A stretch of DNA of 64,000 nt from Vibrio japonicus (GTDB taxonomy: Bacteria; Pseudomonadota; Gammaproteobacteria; Enterobacterales; Vibrionaceae): contig NZ_CP102096.1 of assembly GCF_024582835.1 (NCBI RefSeq), forward strand, positions 868,001-932,000, written 5' to 3'. The position numbers and the translations under genes were made by a program. The notes beneath the pieces were generated by a model that saw nothing but the letters and a program-made list of their open reading frames with translations, made no database searches and was not told the origin of the DNA. Shown here one piece after another: positions 34,743 to 45,849 of this stretch; position 1 is the stretch's first letter; each line of letters opens with the position of its first letter.

Positions 34743-35765
34743 TTGTTAGCATATATCTTACGGCGTCTTTTATTAGTAATACCCACATTTCTCGGTATTA
34801 CCATTCTCATTTTTGCTATTACTCGATTTGTTCCTGGTGGTCCTGTAGAGCGGATGCTCGCTAGCATGCACTCTGTCTCGGAAAGTGCATCGATGAACGT
34901 CGCTGGAAGCAGTTCAGCTTTATCTGAAGACCAAATAGCAGAATTAAACGCATTTTATGGGTTAGATAAGCCAGTATTGGAGGCCTACTTCGAGTGGTTG
35001 TCTAAAATCCTTGTGCTCGATTTTGGTGAATCTACTCGATATTACGAACCCGTAAGCGACATGATTGCTGAACGACTGCCTGTTTCGCTGTTTTATGGCG
35101 GGATGACGTTCTTTATCAGTTACTTTATTTCTATTCCCCTTGGGTATTACAAAGCGATCAAGCATGGCTCTGTATTTGATTCGTCTTCATCGATACTCAT
35201 TTTTGTCGGGTATGCATTGCCAGGCTATGTAGTAGGTGTCTTTTTAATCACAGTCTTCGCGTATAACCTTGATTGGTTTCCTATGGGTGGCTTTGTCAGT
35301 GATGACTTTGACGACTATGAAACGTTCTTTGAGCAATTCAAGAATATCATGTGGCACGCGATTCTTCCTTTAATCTGTTACTTGATTGGCGACTTTGCCA
35401 CGCTAACAATGACGATGAAGAATAATTTGATGGAAAACATTTCCGCAGATTACATCAGAACGGCAATTGCAAAGGGCTTACCTTTTAACACGGCGGTAAG
35501 AAAACATGCTCTACAAAACAGTTTGATTCCAATCGCGAGCCATTTTGGTAACTCATTGCTCTTTTTCATGACAGGTTCATTCCTTATCGAAGTTATTTTT
35601 AATATCGATGGAATCGGTTTATTGGGATACGAATCCATTATGGAAAGAGACTACCCAGTAGTGATGGGCATCGTCGCAATAAATGCGGTAATGCTAATGA
35701 TCGGTAATATCTTATCGGATCTTTGTGTTGCGTTGGCAGATCCAAGAGTGAGGTTCGGTTCATGA
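34743..35765 (+). CDS. peptide ABC transporter permease (YejB/OppB-like)
   Basis: About 340 residues, an inner-membrane permease of the DppB/OppB family with six helices. The start AYILRRLLLVIPTFLGITI and the early FVPGGPVERML are close to E. coli YejB. The large loop at residues about 35-90 and the EAA-type loop with ADYIRTAIAKGLPFNTAVRKHALQNSLIP, cited by ADYIRTAIAKGL and KHALQNSLIP, contact the ATPases. No ATG is in frame at the start. I take the TTG at 34743, which follows GGAG; a TTG at 34722 would add seven residues. Its stop overlaps the next permease start (ATGA). First of a five-gene importer cluster. Confidence 0.87.
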   Translation: MLAYILRRLLLVIPTFLGITILIFAITRFVPGGPVERMLASMHSVSESASMNVAGSSSALSEDQIAELNAFYGLDKPVLEAYFEWLSKILVLDFGESTRYYEPVSDMIAERLPVSLFYGGMTFFISYFISIPLGYYKAIKHGSVFDSSSSILIFVGYALPGYVVGVFLITVFAYNLDWFPMGGFVSDDFDDYETFFEQFKNIMWHAILPLICYLIGDFATLTMTMKNNLMENISADYIRTAIAKGLPFNTAVRKHALQNSLIPIASHFGNSLLFFMTGSFLIEVIFNIDGIGLLGYESIMERDYPVVMGIVAINAVMLMIGNILSDLCVALADPRVRFGS

Positions 35766-36808
35766 TTATACAATTGACTCCTTTAACTCAGAAAAAGATT
35801 AAACATTTCAAAGAGATTAAACGTGGGTACTGGTCTCTACTGATTTTATCAACGTTATTGGTGTTATCTCTGTTTGCTGAACTATTGGTGAACAGCAAGG
35901 CGTTGGTTGTTAAGTACAACGGCGAGTTGAGTTTTCCGGTATTTAGTGATGTTCGAACGGGCGATGAATTTGGCCTTAGTTATTCAAGCGAGGTGGATTA
36001 CCGAGCGCTTAAAAAGCAGTTTGAAGAAGATGGTGGCGATAATTTCGTATTGATGCCTTTGGTACCATGGAATCCATACGAGCAAGATTTCAGTGGCGAT
36101 TACCCTCCGTTGCCGCCAAGCATAGAGAGTCAGCATTATTTAGGTACAGATGTTATTGGTAGAGATATCTTAGCGCGCCTTGTTTATGGCTTTCGTATCG
36201 CAATGGGCTTTGCGCTGTTAACAATGGCTATCTCATACGCAATTGGGACGGTGGTTGGATGCTCAATGGGCTTTTTCGGTGGGCGGTTTGATCTTTTTGT
36301 TCAGAGGTTTATTGAAGTTTGGTCAATGGTTCCATTCCTGTATGTGATTATGATTCTAGTTTCAATTACACAGCCGACGTTTACTCTGTTCGTTGCCATT
36401 AACGTCCTCTTTGGATGGATGGGAATGACGTGGTACATGAGGACGATGACCTACAAAGAATCAGCACGCGAATACGTTATGGCAGCAAGAGCTTTAGGTG
36501 CTTCCACACTTAGAATTTTGCTAAAGCATATTCTCCCGAATACGATGGTTATGATTGTTACTCTCGCGCCGTTTACCATTGCTGCAAATATAACGGCACT
36601 AACCGCGCTAGACTATTTAGGATTGGGATTAATGCCACCGACTCCAAGTTGGGGCGAGCTATTGCAGCAGGGTAAATCAAACTTGGACGCGCCTTGGATT
36701 GTGACGTCTGTTGTAACCTCTATTGTCGCTGTACTAGTGATGGTGACTTTTATTGGCGAAGCTATCCGCGCCGCATTTGACCCGAAAAAATTTACACGAT
36801 ACGTGTAG
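35762..36808 (+). CDS. peptide ABC transporter permease (YejE/OppC-like)
   Basis: A 348-residue inner-membrane permease of the DppC/OppC family. One N-terminal helix, a long periplasmic region (about residues 45-135) as in YejE, then five helices with the EAA loop YVMAARALGASTLRILLKHILPN, cited by YVMAARALGAS and LLKHILPN. The segment HYLGTDVIGRDILARLVYG is the family hallmark. I use the ATG at 35762 overlapping the previous stop by 4 bases (ATGA), not an upstream frame extension into the preceding gene. It pairs with the preceding permease to form the membrane channel. Confidence 0.9.
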   Translation: MIIQLTPLTQKKIKHFKEIKRGYWSLLILSTLLVLSLFAELLVNSKALVVKYNGELSFPVFSDVRTGDEFGLSYSSEVDYRALKKQFEEDGGDNFVLMPLVPWNPYEQDFSGDYPPLPPSIESQHYLGTDVIGRDILARLVYGFRIAMGFALLTMAISYAIGTVVGCSMGFFGGRFDLFVQRFIEVWSMVPFLYVIMILVSITQPTFTLFVAINVLFGWMGMTWYMRTMTYKESAREYVMAARALGASTLRILLKHILPNTMVMIVTLAPFTIAANITALTALDYLGLGLMPPTPSWGELLQQGKSNLDAPWIVTSVVTSIVAVLVMVTFIGEAIRAAFDPKKFTRYV

Positions 36809-36833
36809 CTCAGAATAAGACAGGGAATTCATT

Positions 36834-38663
36834 ATGAAGAAATTATTAGTTGCTTCGATTTTATCAGCACTGGGAACGGGCGCTTATGCGGCGAGTCTTC
36901 CTCAAGACCTTAACTGGAAAACCAACTGGGACGAACCTTTATTCGCGTCTTCTGAAGCAAAACGTGGTGGTACTTACCGAACACATATTTTAAGTTTTCC
37001 ACAAACATTGAGAAGCGTTGGACCTGATTCTAACTCTGGCCTGAGAGCCTATTTTTTAGACGATGTACCCAAGCTCGTCGAAAAACACCCTGATACGTTG
37101 GAGTGGATACCTTCAATCGCGAACGAATGGGCTTTTGGTGATGATAACAAGACGATCTATTTTAAGCTTAACCCTGAAGCGAAATGGTCAGATGGTAAGC
37201 CAGTAACGGCTGACGATTTTGTGTTTATGCTTAAGTTCTATCGTTCAAAAGATATTATTGCGCCTTGGTACAACGAGTATTACACCAATGTTATCGCTGA
37301 TGTTCAAAAAGTCGACGCGCATACTATTGCGGTGGTCAGCGGAATAGAGAAAAACCAGGAAGATCTACTTTATACATTAGGTAGCTTAGTTCCTCGCCCT
37401 GCGCACTTTTATGCGAATCCATCTAAGGATGAAAATGGTGATGGTATTGATGATAACTTCGTTCGTAAATTTAACTTCAAAGGCGAGCCGACCACGTCAG
37501 CTTACTATTTGGGTGATGTGAAAAAAGGTAAGCAAATTACCTTCGAACACGTTGGCAATGATTGGTGGGGTTACAGTAACCGTTATTATCAGAATCGTTA
37601 TAACGTAGATAAAATTCGCATTAAGGTTATTCGAGACAACGATATTGCAATGAAGCACTTCGAAAAAGGTTCGTTGGATGCTTTCAGTTTGTTGTTACCT
37701 TCCCTGTGGCATGAGAAAACGCATTCGGAGCCATATAAAAAAGGGTATATCAATAAATTCTGGGGCTATAACCAAATGCCACAAGGTGCTGGCGGTCTCT
37801 GGATGAATACAGCACAACCTTTATTGGGAGATATAGAGCTGCGCAAAGGGATCATGTTGGCTACGGATTACGATGGCATGATCGAGAACATCACACGTGG
37901 GGATTACACGCGTAAGCCACATGCGATGGGATTCGGTCACGGAAACTATGATCTTCCGAACCCAACGCCGCCAAAATTTGATCCAGAAAAAGCAGCGGAA
38001 CACTTTGCTAAAGCGGGATTCGATCAAATTGGGCCTGACGGTATACGCATGAATGCCAAAGGTGAGCGATTAAGTTTTGGCATCACTTACGGTGTAAATG
38101 CTTGGACACCTCGTATCGCATTTCTAAAAGAACAAGCGAAATTAGCAGGGTTGGAATTTACGCTAAATCTTGTAGATGGTTCAGCAGCATTTAAATATAC
38201 ACTAGAAAAGAAACATGAACTCGCATTTCTAAATATGGGGACAAGTGATGTTCCAGCATATTGGGAATACTTCCATAGTTTCAATGCGAATAAACCTCAG
38301 ACTAACAACCATACGAATTTCAGTTCGCCGCTTTTGGATAAATTGATTGAGCAATACAAAGCAGAGTTTGATCTCGCGAAGAAGCAGGAACTGTCTCACA
38401 AGATTCAGGAAGAGATCACAGCAGCTAATGTGATTGTACCTGGCTATATGGTGCCTTATGCACGAGAAGCACACTGGCGTTGGATGAAGTTCCCAGAGAA
38501 AGCAATGACCAAGCGTACATACAACATGTTCTCTATTGATCGAACTTTCGGCTTACATACTTTCTGGATCGATAAAGATATTGAGAAAGAAACTAAGAAA
38601 GCGATGAAGCAGGATAAAACATTCCCAGAAGTTACGATCGTGGATGAGCGTTATAAGCTATAG
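36834..38663 (+). CDS. peptide ABC transporter substrate-binding protein (family 5, YejA-like)
   Basis: A 609-residue periplasmic binding protein of solute-binding family 5, with signal peptide residues 1-19 (ending GAYA). It has the family pattern EWAFGDDNKTIYFKLNPEAKWSDGKPVTADDFVF, cited by KWSDGKPVTADDFVF near residue 120. Length and overall pattern are nearer to YejA (about 600 residues) than to OppA (about 540). YejA-type proteins bind peptides, including microcin C and antimicrobial peptides. The segment DENGDGIDDNF near residue 200 looks like a calcium-binding EF-hand-type loop, unusual in this family and fitting a marine setting. It lies third in the cluster, after the permeases, unlike yejABEF. 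Confidence 0.88.
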   Translation: MKKLLVASILSALGTGAYAASLPQDLNWKTNWDEPLFASSEAKRGGTYRTHILSFPQTLRSVGPDSNSGLRAYFLDDVPKLVEKHPDTLEWIPSIANEWAFGDDNKTIYFKLNPEAKWSDGKPVTADDFVFMLKFYRSKDIIAPWYNEYYTNVIADVQKVDAHTIAVVSGIEKNQEDLLYTLGSLVPRPAHFYANPSKDENGDGIDDNFVRKFNFKGEPTTSAYYLGDVKKGKQITFEHVGNDWWGYSNRYYQNRYNVDKIRIKVIRDNDIAMKHFEKGSLDAFSLLLPSLWHEKTHSEPYKKGYINKFWGYNQMPQGAGGLWMNTAQPLLGDIELRKGIMLATDYDGMIENITRGDYTRKPHAMGFGHGNYDLPNPTPPKFDPEKAAEHFAKAGFDQIGPDGIRMNAKGERLSFGITYGVNAWTPRIAFLKEQAKLAGLEFTLNLVDGSAAFKYTLEKKHELAFLNMGTSDVPAYWEYFHSFNANKPQTNNHTNFSSPLLDKLIEQYKAEFDLAKKQELSHKIQEEITAANVIVPGYMVPYAREAHWRWMKFPEKAMTKRTYNMFSIDRTFGLHTFWIDKDIEKETKKAMKQDKTFPEVTIVDERYKL

Positions 38664-38681
38664 CTTGTGAGGATCAGGAAG

Positions 38682-39542
38682 ATGAGCAGTGAAGTAGTAC
38701 TAAGTGTTAAAAACTTGGAAACTGAATTCTTAACGGATAATGGGCCAGTAAAAGTTCTTCATGGCGTGAGTTTCGATGTAAAGAAAGGTCGCACGTTGGG
38801 CTTAGTTGGCGAATCTGGTTGTGGTAAGAGTGTCACCTCGATGTCCATTATGGGGTTGTTGCCCAAGCCTTATGGCAACATTGTTGGCGGTGAAATCTTA
38901 TACCGAGGCAAAGATTTGGTTTCTATGCCTTCCGAAGAGATGTATGCCATGCGTGGTGATCGCATTTCTATCATCTTCCAGGATCCTATGACAGCTTTGA
39001 ACCCAGTGCATACGGTCGGCAAGCAGCTTATGGAAGTATTAGAGTTGCACCGTCCAGAATTGGCGAAAGCTGAGCAACGACATTATGCCCTGCAGATGTT
39101 GGAGAAAGTCAGAATTCCTATGCCGGAAAAGCGCATTGATGAGTATCCACATAATCTGTCCGGTGGAATGCGACAGCGTGTCATGATCGCTATGGCTTTA
39201 GCATGTAAGCCCGATATTCTAATCTGTGACGAGCCTACTACAGCACTGGATGTAACTGTACAAGCCTCTATCTTGGAGCTCATGCGTGAGTTACAGGAAG
39301 AGACTGGAATGGCCATGATTTTTATCACTCATGATCTAGGGGTTGTAGCGGAAATTTGTGATGACGTCGCCGTAATGTACGCAGGGAAAATCGTTGAAAA
39401 AGCGGATGTATTTGAGCTATTCGATAACCCACAACACCCATACACCAAAAGGTTAATGGGGCTTATGCCAAGTTTAGATCATGAACCAAAACAAATGATT
39501 GATATTCAACCTATCGATCCAAGTATGTTCCAGGATAACTAA
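38682..39542 (+). CDS. peptide ABC transporter ATP-binding protein (OppD-like)
   Basis: A 286-residue ATPase. Walker A GESGCGKSV near residue 40, signature LSGGMRQRVMIAMAL, Walker B ILICDEPTTALDV and switch histidine in FITHDLGVVAE. The C-terminal PYTKRLMGLMPSL is typical of the oligopeptide/dipeptide subfamily, though the usual four-cysteine iron-sulphur motif of some OppD and DppD proteins is absent. I use the ATG at 38682, preceded by AGGAAG; a GTG at 38667 lies in the ribosome-binding region. It pairs with the next ATPase, where E. coli YejF is a single fused protein. Confidence 0.92.
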   Translation: MSSEVVLSVKNLETEFLTDNGPVKVLHGVSFDVKKGRTLGLVGESGCGKSVTSMSIMGLLPKPYGNIVGGEILYRGKDLVSMPSEEMYAMRGDRISIIFQDPMTALNPVHTVGKQLMEVLELHRPELAKAEQRHYALQMLEKVRIPMPEKRIDEYPHNLSGGMRQRVMIAMALACKPDILICDEPTTALDVTVQASILELMRELQEETGMAMIFITHDLGVVAEICDDVAVMYAGKIVEKADVFELFDNPQHPYTKRLMGLMPSLDHEPKQMIDIQPIDPSMFQDN

Positions 39543-39551
39543 GGGAAAGCC

Positions 39552-40358
39552 ATGCAAGAAGTATTAAGAATTGAAGGCTTAAAGCAGCACTTTGTCTCCG
39601 GGAAAAAGCTGTTTTCTAAAGGTTATACGGTCAAAGCTGTTGATGGTGTTTCCTTTTCGTTAGAGCAGGGTAAAACATTAGGTTTGGTGGGCGAGTCTGG
39701 GTGTGGAAAAAGCACTTTGGGGAGAACGATCCTCAAGTTGTTCGAACCAACAGAAGGAAGCATTTACTTCGAAGGAAAAGATATTACGAGGCTATCCCCT
39801 AAGGAAATGCGTCCTCTGCGTAAAGACATGCAAATCGTATTTCAGGACCCAATGGAATCTCTTAATCAACGACATACGATAGGTATGATCTTAGAAGAAC
39901 CTTATATTATCCATAAAATGGGAACGGATAAGGAACGAAAACAGTGGGTTCTGGAATTATTGGATAAAGTCGGTTTACCTCGTGAAGCGATTAACCGCTA
40001 TCCGCATGAATTTTCTGGTGGGCAAAGACAGCGTATTGGTATCGCTCGTGCCATAGCACTAAAACCAAAGTTATTAATTTGTGATGAGTCAGTATCGGCA
40101 CTTGATGTTTCAGTACAAGCTCAGATTATAAATTTGTTACTTGCGCTGCAAAAAGACATGAATCTTGCAATTATATTTATCTCGCATGACTTGTCAGTGG
40201 TAAAACAAGTTTCTGATGATGTAGCTGTTATGTATTTTGGCAAGGTGGTCGAATATGGCCCAGCACTAGAAGTTTATAATTCACCAGAAAATGAATATAC
40301 AAAAAAACTATTATCAGCAATACCTATAACACACCCTAGTCAGCGAAAACGCGCCTAG
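39552..40358 (+). CDS. peptide ABC transporter ATP-binding protein (OppF-like)
   Basis: A 268-residue ATPase forming the second nucleotide-binding subunit of the importer. Walker A GESGCGKST near residue 50, signature FSGGQRQRIGIARAIAL, Walker B LLICDESVSALDVSVQAQ and switch histidine FISHDLSVVKQ. The Walker B runs DES, where DEP is the most common form; this is within normal variation. It begins 9 bases after the preceding gene. Sequence after its stop becomes AT-rich and holds two hairpins before the next gene. Confidence 0.92.
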   Translation: MQEVLRIEGLKQHFVSGKKLFSKGYTVKAVDGVSFSLEQGKTLGLVGESGCGKSTLGRTILKLFEPTEGSIYFEGKDITRLSPKEMRPLRKDMQIVFQDPMESLNQRHTIGMILEEPYIIHKMGTDKERKQWVLELLDKVGLPREAINRYPHEFSGGQRQRIGIARAIALKPKLLICDESVSALDVSVQAQIINLLLALQKDMNLAIIFISHDLSVVKQVSDDVAVMYFGKVVEYGPALEVYNSPENEYTKKLLSAIPITHPSQRKRA

Positions 40359-40406
40359 GAATAAAAATAATAAATCAAAATTAATTTTTTCGCTTGTTAA
40401 CTTTTT

Positions 40407-40435
40407 ATCAGAAATAAGGGGGGCTTATTTCTGAT
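40407..40435 (+). other. perfect 12-bp hairpin with a five-G loop
   Basis: ATCAGAAATAAG and its exact complement CTTATTTCTGAT flank GGGGG. No T run follows, so it is not a classical terminator. It lies 49 bases after the last ABC gene and may separate importer mRNA from that of the barrel and protease, or act in mRNA stability. Confidence 0.55.
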
Positions 40436-40474
40436 GGTTGTTATTTGCACAAATAAAAATCAAGGCAAATAGCA

Positions 40475-40508
40475 CATGAAACACTCTTATTGAGTTCAAT
40501 ATTTCATG
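40475..40508 (+). other. second hairpin just before the barrel gene
   Basis: CATGAAA at 40475-40481 pairs with TTTCATG at 40502-40508, and inside CTC pairs with GAG. It ends 14 bases before the barrel ATG, so it overlaps the region of its ribosome-binding site (GGAAG). Confidence 0.4.
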
Positions 40509-40522
40509 GAAGTTAATAATCT

Positions 40523-41350
40523 ATGCAAAACACAACAAAGTGGAAAGAGAGTATCATTGCATTCTCTCTCCTATCCATATTTAGTTCGTCGGCTTTATCT
40601 GATGATAATAAGCCCGATGAGCAACAAATAAAGTCTAGCTTTGGCGGTAATGTCTCAGTTGCTTACGATACCAATATTTATCACAAGGACGATCACCGTT
40701 CTGTACGTAATATTTCTTGGAATGGTTCACTGCATTACTCATTTGCCTCTAATTACCGCGCTTACCTAAGTAGCGGTGGTTATAGGGCGCTTGAGGATAA
40801 AACAGGAGACTATTTTACGGATAGTGTGATTGGTATTAGTCGTTCAAACCTCTTTGAATTTGGTGATACGGCAACAGTTGGGATAAATGGCCAGTTTACT
40901 ATTCCTACGTCTGAAACATCACGTAAAGATGAACTTATTACAGCCTTTCGAGTTGCTGTGCCTTTAAGTTTTCAGATTTCTGATGCCAACATTTCAGTTT
41001 CACCTCGGTTAAGGAAGAATTTCCATAAGTACCAAACCGCAGGCGGAAAATCATTAACTGAATGGGTTTATTCATTATCTACTTCCGCTAGCTATTCATT
41101 CCAGGATCTTACTGTTGGGATTTCTGCCCTTGCCGGAAACTCAATCAGTTATCAAGGTACGCGCCGTAACAGTATCACCTATGGTGGCTCTGTCTTTGGT
41201 TCATACCAGCTCACAGATGCATTTAGTTTTAGTCTTTCAGCCTCGACCTCTGGTTTCTATTTAGATGCGGAGAAAGGGACTCTTGGCGATATCGACATTT
41301 TTGATGCAGATCGCGCGTCTTATGAAGCGCGTATTAGTTACTCCTTTTAG
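40523..41350 (+). CDS. orphan outer-membrane beta-barrel protein
   Basis: I do not recognise a named family. The product has 275 residues with a signal peptide (about residues 1-26, ending SSSALS). After an acidic stretch DDNKPDEQQIK, the mature part is a run of amphipathic strands with alternating hydrophobic and polar residues and aromatic ends, ending EARISYSF. The terminal Phe is the standard signal for Bam-mediated insertion. About 10 to 12 strands are likely. It starts 164 bases after the importer genes and ends 29 bases before the lipoprotein protease gene, so it is probably cotranscribed with the latter. A pore or display partner is possible; this is inference. Confidence 0.75.
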   Translation: MQNTTKWKESIIAFSLLSIFSSSALSDDNKPDEQQIKSSFGGNVSVAYDTNIYHKDDHRSVRNISWNGSLHYSFASNYRAYLSSGGYRALEDKTGDYFTDSVIGISRSNLFEFGDTATVGINGQFTIPTSETSRKDELITAFRVAVPLSFQISDANISVSPRLRKNFHKYQTAGGKSLTEWVYSLSTSASYSFQDLTVGISALAGNSISYQGTRRNSITYGGSVFGSYQLTDAFSFSLSASTSGFYLDAEKGTLGDIDIFDADRASYEARISYSF

Positions 41351-41379
41351 GGAAATAAAAATAATATTAAGGACATGAC

Positions 41380-44300
41380 ATGAAGTTTAAAAAAATAGGA
41401 CTAGCTTCAGCGATTGCCGCTGTATTAGCTGGTTGTGGAGCTGATGACCAGCCCTACGAATACGTAGAAAGAGACATAAAAGAAGTTAAAGTAAATGACC
41501 TTCGACTCGATGGTCGTTGGTTTTATGCGCCGACTACAGGGGCTGCACCTAGGTTTGCAGTCACGCAGTTTCCATTTCTGCAAGGCATGGCTCGATATGT
41601 CGAACTTTGTTTTTCTGACGAAGGTTTAGAGGTTCGTGGCTATGATCGTAATAACCCGGAAGCGCGTTTACCAAAAGATGCGAATGGTTTCTGTCTACCT
41701 GAAGGTACAGACACTGCAAGCGATCAATATCTGGGTGGTGAAGATACCGTTAACTTCCCACATGTAATGACGATTGCTGGTTCATACGATAAATATCAAT
41801 GTCGTGAAGACAGCTATGGTGATTGTACAAACGTTGAAGAAACAGATTCTAACCCTAATTTGTCGACGGGCGCTTTTCGCAACAATACCCACTTTACTCC
41901 TGACCCAGCCTCGACAAAGGTTACAGAACTTAACTTAGACGAGCTTTATGGCACTAAAGAAGGTCTAAGCGCGCAAGGCGATCCAGAGGTGATTTCTTGG
42001 GAATTTGATCCTAAGAGCGGTGTTTTAAACTTTGAACTAGAGCAAACCTTCTCAATAGATGTAGAGCAACTATCTTCTTACATTGATTGGTCTGCAATGG
42101 AAGAAGAGCTTGCCAACGGCTCTTTCAAAGCGCGTTTTTACTACTCATTAATCCATGAAGACCATTTGGCTTCTAAGGATTATCAACCAATCGTGTATCC
42201 GAACGCTGATGACACTTCATTCGGCTTCTTCACGACGACAACGTTGAAGTTAAATCCAACGACGAACAAGTATGAAGATATCACTTATCTTAACCGTTTT
42301 AACCCAGAGTTAGGCGCGATTGAGTATTACTTGACTGATAACTTCTTTGAGCCAAAAAACAAGATGTATTTAGACAGTACGATAGAAACTGTCAATAAAA
42401 TGAACGAAGCCTTGAGTGTTATTGGTGTTAAAACAAGTAAGCCACCAATCCAAATCGTCAATAAAACACAAGGGTTAGGTATCCATGCGGGTGATTTACG
42501 CTACAACGTGATTAACTTAGTGGATGAGCCTTTAGATAACGGTCTACTTGGTTATGGTCCGCTCATCGCCGATCCACGTACTGGCGAAATTATTAAAGCG
42601 CACGTAAACCAATATTCTGGCGTAGCGCGTACAGGTGCCCAACTATACTGGAATAACCTTGCTAGGTTCTATAATCGCCAGCAGTTGAGCAATGTAGAGT
42701 ACTTCAAGCCGCCAACGGAAAATGCGTCTACAGATGGTGCAGTTCAATCGGCTACACCAGCAGTAGCAAAAGCGATGCAGTCTCAAGTTGTTAGAAACAT
42801 CACTGCAAAGCAAGTAGCAGATGCTGACCCATATTCATCTCAGTCCGCGCATTACTTAGAAGAGCCAGAGTCTGTTGGATATACAAAGCCAATTCGTCAC
42901 AAGGATCTGATCACTATTACTGATGAATCTAGCCTTGAAGACGTCGTAAAAGCAGATATGCAGCGCCTTCAGATGTGGAGTGAGAATACTGTATTCCCTC
43001 AAGAGGCGATGTGGATTTCAGCGACTCAGAAATCGATGATTGAAGCACTAGACTTAGAATCAGGCGACTTCTTCAAGAATGTCTATGATGATCAGGGTGT
43101 TGTCATTGGTCGTGAGCTGAAACGATGGAAGGAGCTTGGGATTGATGAGCGAAGAATCGCAGCTGACGCCCTAACCATTACGACCTACGCAAATACATTA
43201 GTTCATGAGTTGGGCCACAATGTAGGATTGCGCCACAACTTCAAAGGTTCGAATGACTCAAAGAACTTTTATAGTGCAGATCAAGCTGAGAAACTCGGTC
43301 TAAAGAGCATTCCTGCCTACAGCTCTACGATGGATTACGCTCCAAGCATGCTTGATGAAACGCCTACTTGGGGGCTATATGATCTGGAAGCATTTAAGTT
43401 TGCTTATGGTCGTGAGCTAGATGTATATGGCGATATACCCGTACAGCAAGTGCCTAAGCCAGTAGAAGTGACTGCTGTTACAGAAACTGCTTTGCCAACG
43501 GATCGTGAACCAACGGCTGAAGAACAAGCTCAATACGATTTGTGGTTGGAGTATAAGCAGTACCAAGAAGATTTAGAGCAGTACAACGCTTGGGTTAACT
43601 ACACTCAAACCGCAATTTATAGAGCGACTGGGCCGACAAGTTTGCTTGATTGTAAGGCGATTGGGGTCGTGGCAGACGGCTCTGAGCAAAAATTTAAGTA
43701 CACTTGTTCTCTCGACAAAATCGATAAAATTGCTTTGATTGATGAAGTAGGCTTACGTACAGACGTTGAGAAGTTGTTTAACAAACAGCTAAGAAGTAGT
43801 GCTCGCGTTGTATCAGTGCTGCAAGACTCTAGCCAGTTGTCTGAGTATAAGTATTTGTCACAACTGAATAAAGTGATCCCACTTAACTCCGTTTCAAGTT
43901 TAGAGCAATTGCAGGAAGTATTTAACTCGGTACAGGACACCAAAGAGATAGTGCGTCACGGCGTGATCAATTATGTCGAAGGTGAGTTTGATCTAAAACG
44001 AGAGTCCTTTTCTTTCTGTACAGATGGGAATGTTTCTTTAAATAGTGACTGTAACCGTTTTGATGAAGGTACTAACCTAGCTGAAATTGTTAGCTACAAG
44101 TGGCAGAGCTACTTAGACAACTATGCAAATGCTAACACCGGGGAGCTGAGCCGAGATGGTTTGACCACTTCGAATTACCTAGGTTACCTACTGCGCCGCC
44201 TGAGAAGCATGAACGAAGTAAGGGAAGTTATAGAGGACTCTGAACGTTTAGACGATCTATATACAACACTCGGTTATGCTCGTACTACAGATAGACCACT

Positions 44301-45849
44301 AGACTTCTTTAGTTACATGGTTGAGTCTGACTGTAGTACAACGCAAGAAAACTCTCTTTGGTTCTGTGATACCGGCAATGCGTCTAAGAAAGCTTCAGGT
44401 TACTTTTTGAGCATTCTTCGCACACCAGAGCACCAATGTGTTGTGGAAACTCGATCAACAGCAGATAGCTCTGTGGTATTAGATACCAAGGTCATTTCAC
44501 TAGGTGAATTTATTTCTACCACTGCTCGACATGATCTGAGTACGAGTTATGACATCGCTAATGCTTCTTGTTTTGATAAAGAAATTCAGCAATCGATTCG
44601 TCAAGACTTCGATGGTTCTCGATCTACTCAAATATCGGCAGCCGTTGCTGAGACGCGTAATGGCCGCTTCTTAAATTCAGTAGCGAGTTTTGACCCGTCG
44701 AACAACTATTCCAACTCAGTATCAGCGTTGGGTATTTGGCCTGACAAAATTTTAGCTTCATATCTATTGGCGAGACGTTATTCACTTCGTTATACGGATG
44801 AAGTTAGCCATGCAGCTCTTATGGATTGGCCAGGGGTTAAAAAAGAGTTTGATAGTATCATCGAACACCTAGTTGCGGGAGCCCCACTTGCGACGCCTGT
44901 AGAGCTGATAGATGAGAATGGCAATCTTGTATCGTCATCTGTACCTGTAAACCTTCATTTAACGAGTAAACTTGAGTCTCTACCACCAATGCCATGTAGT
45001 GTGTACGAATTCTTACAAGTTCCGTGTAATGGTCGAGGTGATATTCCATCGATGATTTTAGGTATGGCAACTAAGTACATTTATTCTGCAGACCATGATG
45101 TTCGTTCACGTTCTGTGGCACAACTGGACAGTTGGGTGAAAGAGCGAGAAAACTACTATTTGCCAGATGGCAGTGTTTCATTTGTGTTAGATAACTCAAA
45201 ATATGCTGCAACTGAGGCAAATACATTGGCTTGGAAATATGCACAAAAGTTAAATGCTGTAGAGCCTTCAGAACTGATTAAGAAATTACGAGCTCAGTCT
45301 AGGGATGATCTGCAAGAAGTAGTGGATACGTGGGCTTCGATTCCGAGTTCGAACTGGTCTTACTATTACAAGGCAGTTGTAAATCTAAACAATACAAGCA
45401 TGGTGGAGAATTTGGCAGAGCACGTGATTGCCAATGTTGCTCAGGTTAAAGGCTGGGGATACGACTCACTCAGTGACGATGTGATCAACTATATTCTTAA
45501 CCAAGCCCTAAATGCAGAAGTTGCGGCAGGGCGCATAACAATGGATCAAGGCAGTGTAACTCACGTAGAAAGTGGAAAAATTTACCCTGTTAACGATGTG
45601 ATTAACGCAATTGTTGGCCTCGAATACGCTGCATATAGCAAAGAAGGAGAGGTAGAACTGGTTATTGAAACGGCTAAGAAGGTGAACGACGCGCTCGCTA
45701 CTGCGACACCTGAAATGGCAGAAATTTGGCAGTTACCTGTTCCGACAATACAAGCATACTTAAACGGCGATTATCGTAGTCTTGATGAAGAGTTCTATAA
45801 AACTCAAGAAATTCTCAAACGATTACCGGTAGGAGTAGAGGCCTTCTAA
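41380..45849 (+). CDS. giant lipoprotein with metzincin zinc-protease signature (1489 residues)
   Basis: The lipobox LAGC (Cys19, followed by Gly) predicts a lipoprotein with no inner-membrane retention signal, hence outer membrane. The zinc motif HELGHNVGLRH at residues 609-619 fits HExxHxxGxxH, and STMDYAP with Met651 fits the metzincin Met-turn 42 residues later. That pattern resembles the DUF4953/DUF5117 family of large zinc metalloproteases. After it, GLYDLEAFKFAYG is also typical. A charged Pro/Glu-rich insertion (about residues 690-745) and several cysteines (for instance in the 160s, 880s and 980s) occur; they may form disulphides. The roughly 750-residue C-terminal half is unassigned. 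Family assignment is from motif memory only; substrate is unknown. Confidence 0.75.
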   Translation: MKFKKIGLASAIAAVLAGCGADDQPYEYVERDIKEVKVNDLRLDGRWFYAPTTGAAPRFAVTQFPFLQGMARYVELCFSDEGLEVRGYDRNNPEARLPKDANGFCLPEGTDTASDQYLGGEDTVNFPHVMTIAGSYDKYQCREDSYGDCTNVEETDSNPNLSTGAFRNNTHFTPDPASTKVTELNLDELYGTKEGLSAQGDPEVISWEFDPKSGVLNFELEQTFSIDVEQLSSYIDWSAMEEELANGSFKARFYYSLIHEDHLASKDYQPIVYPNADDTSFGFFTTTTLKLNPTTNKYEDITYLNRFNPELGAIEYYLTDNFFEPKNKMYLDSTIETVNKMNEALSVIGVKTSKPPIQIVNKTQGLGIHAGDLRYNVINLVDEPLDNGLLGYGPLIADPRTGEIIKAHVNQYSGVARTGAQLYWNNLARFYNRQQLSNVEYFKPPTENASTDGAVQSATPAVAKAMQSQVVRNITAKQVADADPYSSQSAHYLEEPESVGYTKPIRHKDLITITDESSLEDVVKADMQRLQMWSENTVFPQEAMWISATQKSMIEALDLESGDFFKNVYDDQGVVIGRELKRWKELGIDERRIAADALTITTYANTLVHELGHNVGLRHNFKGSNDSKNFYSADQAEKLGLKSIPAYSSTMDYAPSMLDETPTWGLYDLEAFKFAYGRELDVYGDIPVQQVPKPVEVTAVTETALPTDREPTAEEQAQYDLWLEYKQYQEDLEQYNAWVNYTQTAIYRATGPTSLLDCKAIGVVADGSEQKFKYTCSLDKIDKIALIDEVGLRTDVEKLFNKQLRSSARVVSVLQDSSQLSEYKYLSQLNKVIPLNSVSSLEQLQEVFNSVQDTKEIVRHGVINYVEGEFDLKRESFSFCTDGNVSLNSDCNRFDEGTNLAEIVSYKWQSYLDNYANANTGELSRDGLTTSNYLGYLLRRLRSMNEVREVIEDSERLDDLYTTLGYARTTDRPLDFFSYMVESDCSTTQENSLWFCDTGNASKKASGYFLSILRTPEHQCVVETRSTADSSVVLDTKVISLGEFISTTARHDLSTSYDIANASCFDKEIQQSIRQDFDGSRSTQISAAVAETRNGRFLNSVASFDPSNNYSNSVSALGIWPDKILASYLLARRYSLRYTDEVSHAALMDWPGVKKEFDSIIEHLVAGAPLATPVELIDENGNLVSSSVPVNLHLTSKLESLPPMPCSVYEFLQVPCNGRGDIPSMILGMATKYIYSADHDVRSRSVAQLDSWVKERENYYLPDGSVSFVLDNSKYAATEANTLAWKYAQKLNAVEPSELIKKLRAQSRDDLQEVVDTWASIPSSNWSYYYKAVVNLNNTSMVENLAEHVIANVAQVKGWGYDSLSDDVINYILNQALNAEVAAGRITMDQGSVTHVESGKIYPVNDVINAIVGLEYAAYSKEGEVELVIETAKKVNDALATATPEMAEIWQLPVPTIQAYLNGDYRSLDEEFYKTQEILKRLPVGVEAF

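What the first reader, a model, noticed from the sequence alone, without database searches (positions are those of the whole stretch)
34743..45849. Peptide importer, orphan barrel and giant lipoprotein protease in one block
Seen: five genes for a YejABEF/Opp-like ABC peptide importer, then a 275-residue beta-barrel and a 1489-residue lipoprotein with zinc-protease motifs, all on one strand between the conserved pyrF and miaE. Known: YejABEF imports peptides such as microcin C; DUF4953/DUF5117-like proteases are large and poorly studied. Inference: an outer-membrane protein-scavenging system in which the protease makes peptides, the barrel is a pore or display partner, and the ABC system imports them. 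An alternative is handling of a specific peptide such as an antimicrobial or signal. The importer gene order (B, E, A, then two separate ATPases) also differs from yejABEF.
Basis: partly seen in the sequence, partly recalled or inferred. Interest (0 to 1): 0.72.

Follow-up and report, generated by a model that had tools for sequence, protein, structure and literature searches.

The report
Lipoprotein protease, barrel and peptide importer
A marine bacterium carries, side by side, genes for a peptide importer, an outer-membrane barrel and a very large lipid-anchored protease; relatives mostly keep barrel and protease together, Vibrio-type bacteria often keep an importer with them, and close relatives have swapped the body of the protease while leaving the genes around it in place.

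Summary
In detail: seven same-strand genes (34743-45849) between pyrF and miaE encode two permeases, a binding protein, two separate ATPases, a predicted 12-stranded barrel and a 1489-residue lipoprotein metzincin. The one-system reading is partly right. The core is barrel plus protease, found also in Aliivibrio, Aeromonas, Ferrimonas, Shewanella, Motilimonas and Bdellovibrionota, mostly with no importer seen nearby. In 24 genomes (Vibrio, Motilimonas, one other family) a peptide importer lies within 11 kb at 26 of 35 protease loci, in five arrangements. So the importer looks like a lineage-specific partner.

Unexpected: the protease body is exchanged in place. Between two close relatives the nine neighbouring genes compared, barrel included, are 92-99% identical and the protease signal region is identical, yet the protease is 34% identical (AU p 3e-70). 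The barrel does not follow the protease.

Best explanation: the barrel holds or exports a surface protease by its conserved N-terminal tether; the protease digests outside protein, and in Vibrio the neighbouring ABC transporter imports the peptides. Shown: genes, linkage, exchange. Predicted: fold. Inferred: surface location, barrel role, substrate. The literature searches listed (titles and abstract starts) showed no paper on this pair.

The parts
34743..35765 (+). Permease 1 (YejB/OppB-like); TTG start, upstream TTG 34722 also open
   Evidence: ORF; BPD_transp_1 E 2.3e-31; best NF011712 (YejB) 262.9 bits, cut-off 445
35723..36808 (+). Permease 2 (YejE/OppC-like); the real start is probably the ATG at 35762, overlapping the stop of permease 1 (inference)
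   Evidence: ORF; BPD_transp_1 E 1.8e-29; NF011596 290.6 bits, cut-off 439
36834..38663 (+). Periplasmic solute-binding protein, 609 aa, family 5; distant to YejA
   Evidence: SBP_bac_5 E 2.1e-51; phmmer to YejA 8fsr E 6.5e-12, best 4ony E 5.7e-22
38667..39542 (+). ABC ATPase 1 (OppD-like)
39552..40358 (+). ABC ATPase 2 (OppF/DppF-like)
40405..40437 (+). Intercistronic hairpin, 14 pairs; the tail TTGTTATTTG is a poor run of T. Strong stems also fold in the same gap of the other ten pyrF-site loci folded
40523..41350 (+). Outer-membrane beta-barrel (predicted), 275 aa, signal peptide, 12 predicted strands, C-terminal Phe
   Evidence: (pLDDT 87.2, pTM 0.76)
41380..45849 (+). Giant lipoprotein metzincin, 1489 aa; Cys19 lipobox, HELGHNVGLRHNF 609-621, SSTMDY 648-653
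   Evidence: family 41; model of a relative 114
41434..41475 (+). N-terminal tether CGADDQPYEYVERD behind the lipid-bearing Cys; its start is kept where the rest of the protease is exchanged; its first six codons, as a degenerate pattern, match once in this genome
45873..45903 (.). Terminator-like hairpin on both strands between protease and miaE

Best explanation
The block is a modular protein-scavenging system. Its core is a two-gene unit: a 12-stranded outer-membrane barrel and a giant lipoprotein metzincin. The barrel most likely carries or anchors the lipoprotein at the outer face of the cell, recognising the conserved tether behind the lipid-bearing cysteine rather than the protease body, so protease bodies can be exchanged behind the same signal peptide and barrel. 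The protease cuts outside proteins into peptides. In Vibrio and Motilimonas a dedicated ABC importer has been recruited beside the unit to take the peptides from the periplasm into the cell. Shown here: gene content, conserved pairing, importer linkage in several arrangements, metzincin motif, in-place exchange of the protease body. Predicted: 12-stranded barrel. Inferred: surface location, barrel-tether contact, protein substrate, peptide cargo.
For: Pairing: at 35 protease loci (24 of 148 genomes) the barrel gene is directly upstream at 29, directly downstream at 1, elsewhere in the cluster at 3, not found at 2. In the named-genome scan 26 of 29 loci have it within 150 nt and 27 in the locus; the 2 misses start within 177 nt of a contig end. 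In a third set 15 of 17 have it within 150 nt, both misses at contig ends. The three sets share some loci. Importer: 26 of 35 loci, all permeases within 10.8 kb (one of the 26, G050, from coordinates), against about 5% expected from 265 family-5 matches in the 24 genomes; five arrangements. A different importer (L135) and an OppA-like protein (L169) beside the pair. Exchange: L100 and L102 have nine neighbours at 92-99% (barrel 94%, miaE 98%), signal region 100%, protease 34%; DNA identity falls at about codon 27 and returns after the stop; the L102 protease is nearest to Motilimonas, 47%; the clade L098+L100+L102 is rejected for the protease, p-AU 2.9e-70, and found for barrel and flanks. Tether Tyr invariant in 26 of 26. 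Conserved barrel positions lie mostly in the predicted extracellular half (close set p 2.8e-5).
Against: No experiment shows surface location, proteolysis or peptide uptake. Outside Vibrio and Motilimonas the pair mostly has no importer in the stretch seen, and 9 of 35 first-set loci have none. At the pyrF site importer and barrel are 135-215 nt apart with hairpins, so one transcript is not shown; in the five arrangement-(b) loci the gap is 34-55 nt. The extracellular-conservation signal is weak in the wider barrel set (p 0.087). Barrel fold matches are generic (TM about 0.4-0.56). Two proteases (L138, L140) have no barrel found, so a barrel may not always be needed. Distant family members lack the tether Tyr. 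In L100 against L102 the DNA also diverges beyond miaE, so the protease is not the only difference in the neighbourhood. The linkage tests ignore shared ancestry.
Confidence: 0.5

Rival explanations
1. The barrel is a peptide channel, not a display partner: the protease makes peptides and the barrel lets them diffuse through the outer membrane to the importer.
For: The same importer clade, where it stands without the protease, lies divergent from a TonB-dependent receptor, DUF3450 and MotA/ExbB genes at 8 of 21 fetched stand-alone loci (clusters; Pfam on one example of each), so it is elsewhere beside an outer-membrane uptake device. Foldseek's best matches include the polypeptide transporter FapF and the channel NanC.
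Against: The barrel goes with the protease, not with the importer, in the lineages outside Vibrio and Motilimonas. Twelve-stranded barrels are common and TM is about 0.5. No pore was measured.
Confidence: 0.25
2. Antimicrobial-peptide handling: the surface protease cuts defence peptides and the importer removes them from the periplasm.
For: YejABEF and Sap transporters are linked to antimicrobial peptides (PMC9629497 and PMC3207918, abstract starts in search listings; PMC10924461 abstract). Protease exchange would fit an arms race.
Against: I noticed nothing specific to peptide defence in the neighbourhoods, but did not search for it with the defence library. The pair also occurs in uncultured Bdellovibrionota with no importer seen. 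About 1500 residues is large for a peptide-cutting enzyme (inference).
Confidence: 0.12
3. The importer carries one special peptide or conjugate (signal, metallophore, muropeptide) and its place beside the pair is regulatory convenience.
For: Related transporters do this: YejBEF-YepA imports muropeptides (PMC9790009 passages); MbnE is among the sequence matches of the binding protein. Lone copies of the binding protein stand behind pyrF in five genomes.
Against: Repeated linkage with the protease in five arrangements.
Confidence: 0.1
4. Mere neighbours: importer and pair are unrelated and stayed together by descent.
For: Eleven of the linked loci read lie at the same pyrF site, so they are not independent.
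Against: Five arrangements at several sites; V. penaeicida (L158) has the pair behind an importer at what looks, by the first residues of the flanking proteins, like the site where five other loci have the importer alone (L112-L115, L150).
Confidence: 0.06

Closest known systems
YejABEF / Opp peptide ABC importers
   Same: Same parts: two BPD_transp_1 permeases, family-5 binding protein, OppD/OppF-like ATPases
   Different: Order B, E, A, two separate ATPases; far below the curated Yej cut-offs. A real YejB-YejE-YejF set (615, 545 and 840 bits against 445, 439 and 834) lies directly upstream of the homologous block in L101, with the same layout in L099, L103, L104, so the two are distinct and coexist
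PF16313 Met-zincin (DUF4953) and PF10462 Peptidase_M66 (a relative is annotated 'M66 family metalloprotease')
   Same: Zinc motif and neighbouring residues
   Different: Matches cover only about 50-90 of 316 (DUF4953) or 39 of 306 (M66) profile positions; the rest has no convincing Pfam or solved-structure match
FapF amyloid-secretion barrel, NanC channel
   Same: Barrel fold, among the best Foldseek matches; their 12 strands are recalled
   Different: About 8-14% identity, TM about 0.4-0.6; the N-terminal coiled coil of FapF (recalled) is not in the model
SLAM surface-lipoprotein modulators (recalled)
   Same: A barrel working with a surface lipoprotein is the arrangement I propose
   Different: No PF04575 (recalled accession) match in 34 barrels at E<=0.1
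TonB3 system of Vibrio
   Same: Neighbour of the same importer clade at 8 of 21 fetched stand-alone loci
   Different: TonB-dependent receptor instead of barrel and protease

Membership tests
YejABEF importer | Permeases above the curated NCBIfam cut-off for YejB/YejE | tested here: not met
   262.9 of 445 and 290.6 of 439 bits; positive example L101 above all three Yej cut-offs
YejABEF importer | Gene order A-B-E-F with one fused ATPase (order recalled) | tested here: not met
   B, E, A, then two ATPases
YejABEF importer | Microcin C or peptide uptake | not testable with these tools
   needs experiment
Family-5 (peptide-type) ABC importer | SBP_bac_5, two BPD_transp_1, two ABC_tran over Pfam cut-offs | tested here: met
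PF16313 Met-zincin (DUF4953) | Score over the Pfam cut-off | tested here: inconclusive
   window 23.0 of 24.2; relative L155 38.5; 27 of 27 members match at E<=0.1
PF16313 Met-zincin (DUF4953) | Most of the 316-position domain aligned | tested here: not met
   profile 16-64 (window), 17-103 (L155)
Metzincin peptidases | HExxHxxGxxH zinc motif and Met-turn | tested here: met
   invariant H609 E610 H613 H619 M651 in 26 of 26; motif in 34 of 34, 30 of 30 and 17 of 17 (sets overlap)
Peptidase M66 | Full M66 domain | tested here: inconclusive
   21.6 of 20.6 bits, only 39 residues around the zinc motif
SLAM | PF04575 barrel with TPR domain (recalled) | tested here: not met
   not among the 8 families matched by any of 34 barrels at E<=0.1
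FapF | 12-stranded polypeptide-transporting barrel (recalled) | tested here: inconclusive
   12 strands, Foldseek E 1.7e-5 but TM 0.46; transport untested
Outer-membrane lipoprotein | Lipobox and no Asp at +2 (rule recalled) | tested here: met
   LAGC-G
Surface-exposed lipoprotein | Outer-face location | not testable with these tools
   needs experiment

The most novel reading that the evidence does not exclude
The barrel-lipoprotein pair is an unrecognised surface-display device: a small 12-stranded barrel that exports or holds a conserved lipoprotein tether and so can present interchangeable giant protease bodies, which bacteria swap in place like cartridges; in Vibrio it is wired to a peptide importer whose clade otherwise serves the TonB3 receptor system.
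Probability: 0.3. Interest if true: 0.78.

Novelty: new variant of a known kind. Interest (0 to 1): 0.6.

Why it matters
If right, it names a conserved outer-membrane partner for a family of giant, little-studied proteases found from Vibrio to Bdellovibrionota, and offers a testable route by which these bacteria put large lipoproteins on their surface. In-place exchange of the protease body behind a fixed signal peptide and barrel would be a clear case of cartridge-like change of a predicted surface enzyme. The link of the same importer clade to TonB3-like genes gives a concrete guess (peptides) for a transport system whose role is unsettled: TtpB3 and TtpD3 were not active in iron transport and the cited expression was in serum only (PMC6957404 passages), while another paper credits the three TonB systems together with siderophore and haem transport, and reports TonB3 as unchanged in serum and unresponsive to iron (PMC4260858 passages).

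Tried and rejected
One operon for all seven genes: not shown; the gap at the pyrF site carries hairpins with a poor T-run, so neither a clear terminator nor a clear single transcript. The promoter scan found fewer sites than shuffles (15 against a mean of 28.1) and was not used.

The idea that barrel and protease body co-evolve as a matched pair was tested and rejected at this site: window and L095 share a protease clade that flanks (p 1.4e-4 without the binding protein, 4.5e-5 with it) and barrel (p 0.008) reject, and the barrel clade L093+L094+L095 is rejected by the protease (p 8e-5). The binding protein of the window is itself nearer to L091/L092 (77%) than to the rest.

Transfer by composition: G+C of the exchanged protease is not unusual. 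Plasmids: two records match, a 1.72 Mb replicon and a 68 kb linear record. Rfam (gathering threshold) and tRNA scans of the window found nothing. Foldseek of the protease model gave no match at E<=0.001; the first four (E 0.05 to 0.12) are metzincins (fold class recalled). The viral search of the barrel gave generic barrels. One search was a badly chosen alignment and is not used; one search read one locus only and was replaced. The class-level sample at E<=1e-60 found only the window's own genome (1 of 369).

Literature: DUF4953/DUF5117/DUF5118 no paper; met-zincin 3 papers, M66 family with Vibrio and metalloprotease 1, none on this pair by title and abstract start; further searches. The library holds open-licence papers only. 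Papers seen: PMC6957404, PMC9790009 and PMC4260858 as passages, PMC10924461 as abstract and outline; all others as search listings only.
Full report
What is there. The window lies on a 2.78 Mb contig of a 4.24 Mb genome in three contigs. The genus is Vibrio: G033, listed as the same genus, has the contig length and protease of V. sinaloensis L151. The five importer genes match peptide-type ABC importers by Pfam; the permeases resemble YejB and YejE but stay well below the curated cut-offs. The binding protein matches family-5 structures, among them YejA and MbnE, at modest E-values. The next gene has no Pfam or NCBIfam match. The last encodes a 1489-residue lipoprotein with a metzincin zinc motif; no solved structure matches by sequence with one protein, and a family profile finds only weak hits to the zinc motif of metalloproteinases, best E 0.045.

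Is the linkage real? I searched 148 related genomes with the protease, barrel and binding protein. Twenty-four genomes have a strong protease (best E 1.4e-48 or better), at 35 loci; ten genomes with only weak matches (E 9e-6 to 9e-4) were dropped. I fetched 34 of these loci, window included; the 35th (G050, position 269491) is counted from coordinates. The barrel is directly upstream at 29, directly downstream at 1 (L135), elsewhere in the cluster at 3 (L136, L137, L139) and not found at 2 (L138, L140). A peptide importer is near at 26 of 35, the window type at 25 and another type at L135; in the fetched loci its permeases lie at most 10.8 kb away. The nine without are L106, L107, L109, L134, L138, L140, L141, L142 and L143; the stretches read there reach 3.8 to 11.4 kb on each side, and for the window type the genome-wide binding-protein places show none near. 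The 24 genomes hold 265 SBP_bac_5 matches, so about 5% of positions would lie within 12 kb by chance; this ignores ancestry. L135 has a full set: family-5 binding protein, two permeases and a fused ATPase whose best match, YejF, is below its cut-off.

Arrangements. (a) Importer, barrel, protease at the pyrF site (eleven loci read; miaE follows in most, not in L092 and L105). (b) Importer, barrel, protease, response regulator, histidine kinase (L096, L099, L101, L103, L104; Pfam for L101); in all but L096 a Yej-type set lies directly upstream, and in L101 its three proteins pass the YejB, YejE and YejF cut-offs. (c) Barrel, protease, importer (L108, L110, with an HTH gene, Pfam for L110; L174). 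(d) Barrel, importer, protease (L136, L137, L139; L179). (e) Importer and pair on opposite strands, facing each other (L131, L132, L133). V. penaeicida (L158) has the pair behind an importer at what looks like the site where L112 to L115 and L150 have the importer alone (judged by the first residues of the flanking proteins).

Beyond Vibrio. Twenty-nine of the 80 loci have a protease profile score of at least 400 bits; 27 have the barrel, 26 within 150 nt; the two misses begin within 177 nt of a contig end. Six have the importer: five Vibrio loci (L152 and L174 are one genome) and Motilimonas cestriensis. No full importer appears within the up to 10 kb read on each side in V. tapetis, Aliivibrio, Aeromonas australiensis, Ferrimonas kyonanensis, the Shewanella loci, Paraferrimonas and the Bdellovibrio-type records; an uncultured Aeromonadaceae (L169) has an OppA-like family-5 binding protein directly behind the pair, below the OppA cut-off. 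A sample of 394 genomes of the order gave 20 with the protease at E<=1e-60; 15 loci fetched from it and two plasmid-record loci show the barrel at 15 of 17, both misses at contig ends, and the importer at 3, all Vibrio. A class-wide sample gave 1 of 369, the window itself.

The protease body is exchanged. At the pyrF site, L100 and L102 come from close relatives: the gene before pyrF, pyrF, five importer genes, barrel and miaE are 92-99% identical, the first 26 residues of the protease 100%, the protease as a whole 34%. DNA identity is mostly 81-100% (lowest 77%) up to about codon 27, falls to about 50%, and rises to 75-96% behind the stop through miaE; beyond miaE it falls again, so the tract is not the only difference. 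The L102 body is nearest to Motilimonas (47%). A tree with L098, L100 and L102 together is rejected for the protease (p-AU 2.9e-70), while barrel and flanks put them together. The window's own body groups with L095; flanks and barrel reject that grouping. These groups were named after seeing the identity table, so the p-values are descriptive; the effect sizes are large. The kept start includes the tether CGADDQ-x-Y. Its Tyr is invariant in 26 of 26 aligned proteases and present at that place in 43 of 79 distinct tethers of a set that reaches far relatives. The tether pattern matches once in this genome.

Structure. The barrel model (34 sequences) has 12 strands, mean pLDDT 87.2, pTM 0.76. Foldseek's matches at E<=0.001 (49) are mostly FapF, NanC, OmpG and porin-type barrels at TM 0.36 to 0.56 by query length, so fold alone does not name a function. 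Taking short turns as periplasmic, conservation is higher in the extracellular half in the close set (0.573 against 0.505, p 2.8e-5) and weakly so in the wide set (0.406 against 0.368, p 0.087); no control barrel was run. I read this as a hint of a binding site on the outer face. The protease of the relative L155 (Vibrio tapetis, 1200 residues, 27 sequences) gives pLDDT 71.7, pTM 0.74: a strand-rich N-terminal part, the zinc-motif region and a largely helical C-terminal part; no solved structure matches at E<=0.001. The window's own protease, over the length limit, was not modelled.

How it most likely works. The lipoprotein is sorted to the outer membrane. The barrel recognises the tether and places the protease on, or holds it at, the cell surface. 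The protease digests outside protein. In Vibrio and Motilimonas the neighbouring importer carries peptides from the periplasm to the cytoplasm. How peptides cross the outer membrane is open: the barrel itself, general porins, or a TonB receptor. The modular picture is helped by the stand-alone importer copies: at 8 of 21 fetched, the importer is divergent from a TonB-dependent receptor, DUF3450 and MotA/ExbB genes, with the TonB gene itself in the stretch at 4 of the 8. This matches the described tonB3 operon, which has a receptor gene at its start (PMC6957404, passages).

What I cannot say. No call shows surface location, activity, cargo or co-transcription. The linkage statistics ignore ancestry.

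Verdict. Real, conserved, and better described as a barrel-protease core with a recruited importer than as one seven-gene system. The pairing and the exchange of the protease body are the parts I did not find in print, in the searches listed.

Noticed in passing
L111, L119, L120, L122, L124, L144, L146, L148: A stand-alone copy of the window-type importer lies divergent from a TonB receptor, DUF3450 and MotA/ExbB genes like the Vibrio TonB3 operon: 8 of 21 fetched stand-alone importer loci. Suggests peptides as TonB3 cargo.
   Followed up: partly
L121, L123, L125, L145, L147: Only the binding-protein gene stands behind pyrF, without permeases, ATPases, barrel or protease beside it.
   Followed up: partly
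window 40405-40437 and the same gap in L091-L095, L097, L098, L100, L102, L105: Intercistronic hairpins whose stem sequence differs between species while stems still fold; no covariation test was made; function unknown.
   Followed up: partly
window 36834-38663: The binding protein is nearer to L091/L092 (77%) while permeases and ATPases are mostly nearer to L093-L095, so this gene too may have been exchanged.
   Followed up: partly
L169:10894-12540: An Aeromonadaceae MAG has an OppA-like family-5 binding protein directly behind the barrel-protease pair.
   Followed up: partly
L231:11104-11972 and L258:4695-5582: The barrel frame is split in two (V. parahaemolyticus record NZ_CP141289.1, and G703), either broken genes or sequencing errors.
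   Followed up: no
L179:9962-18706: Three protease-family frames in a row behind the importer in Vibrio sp. UCD-FRSSP16_30.
   Followed up: no
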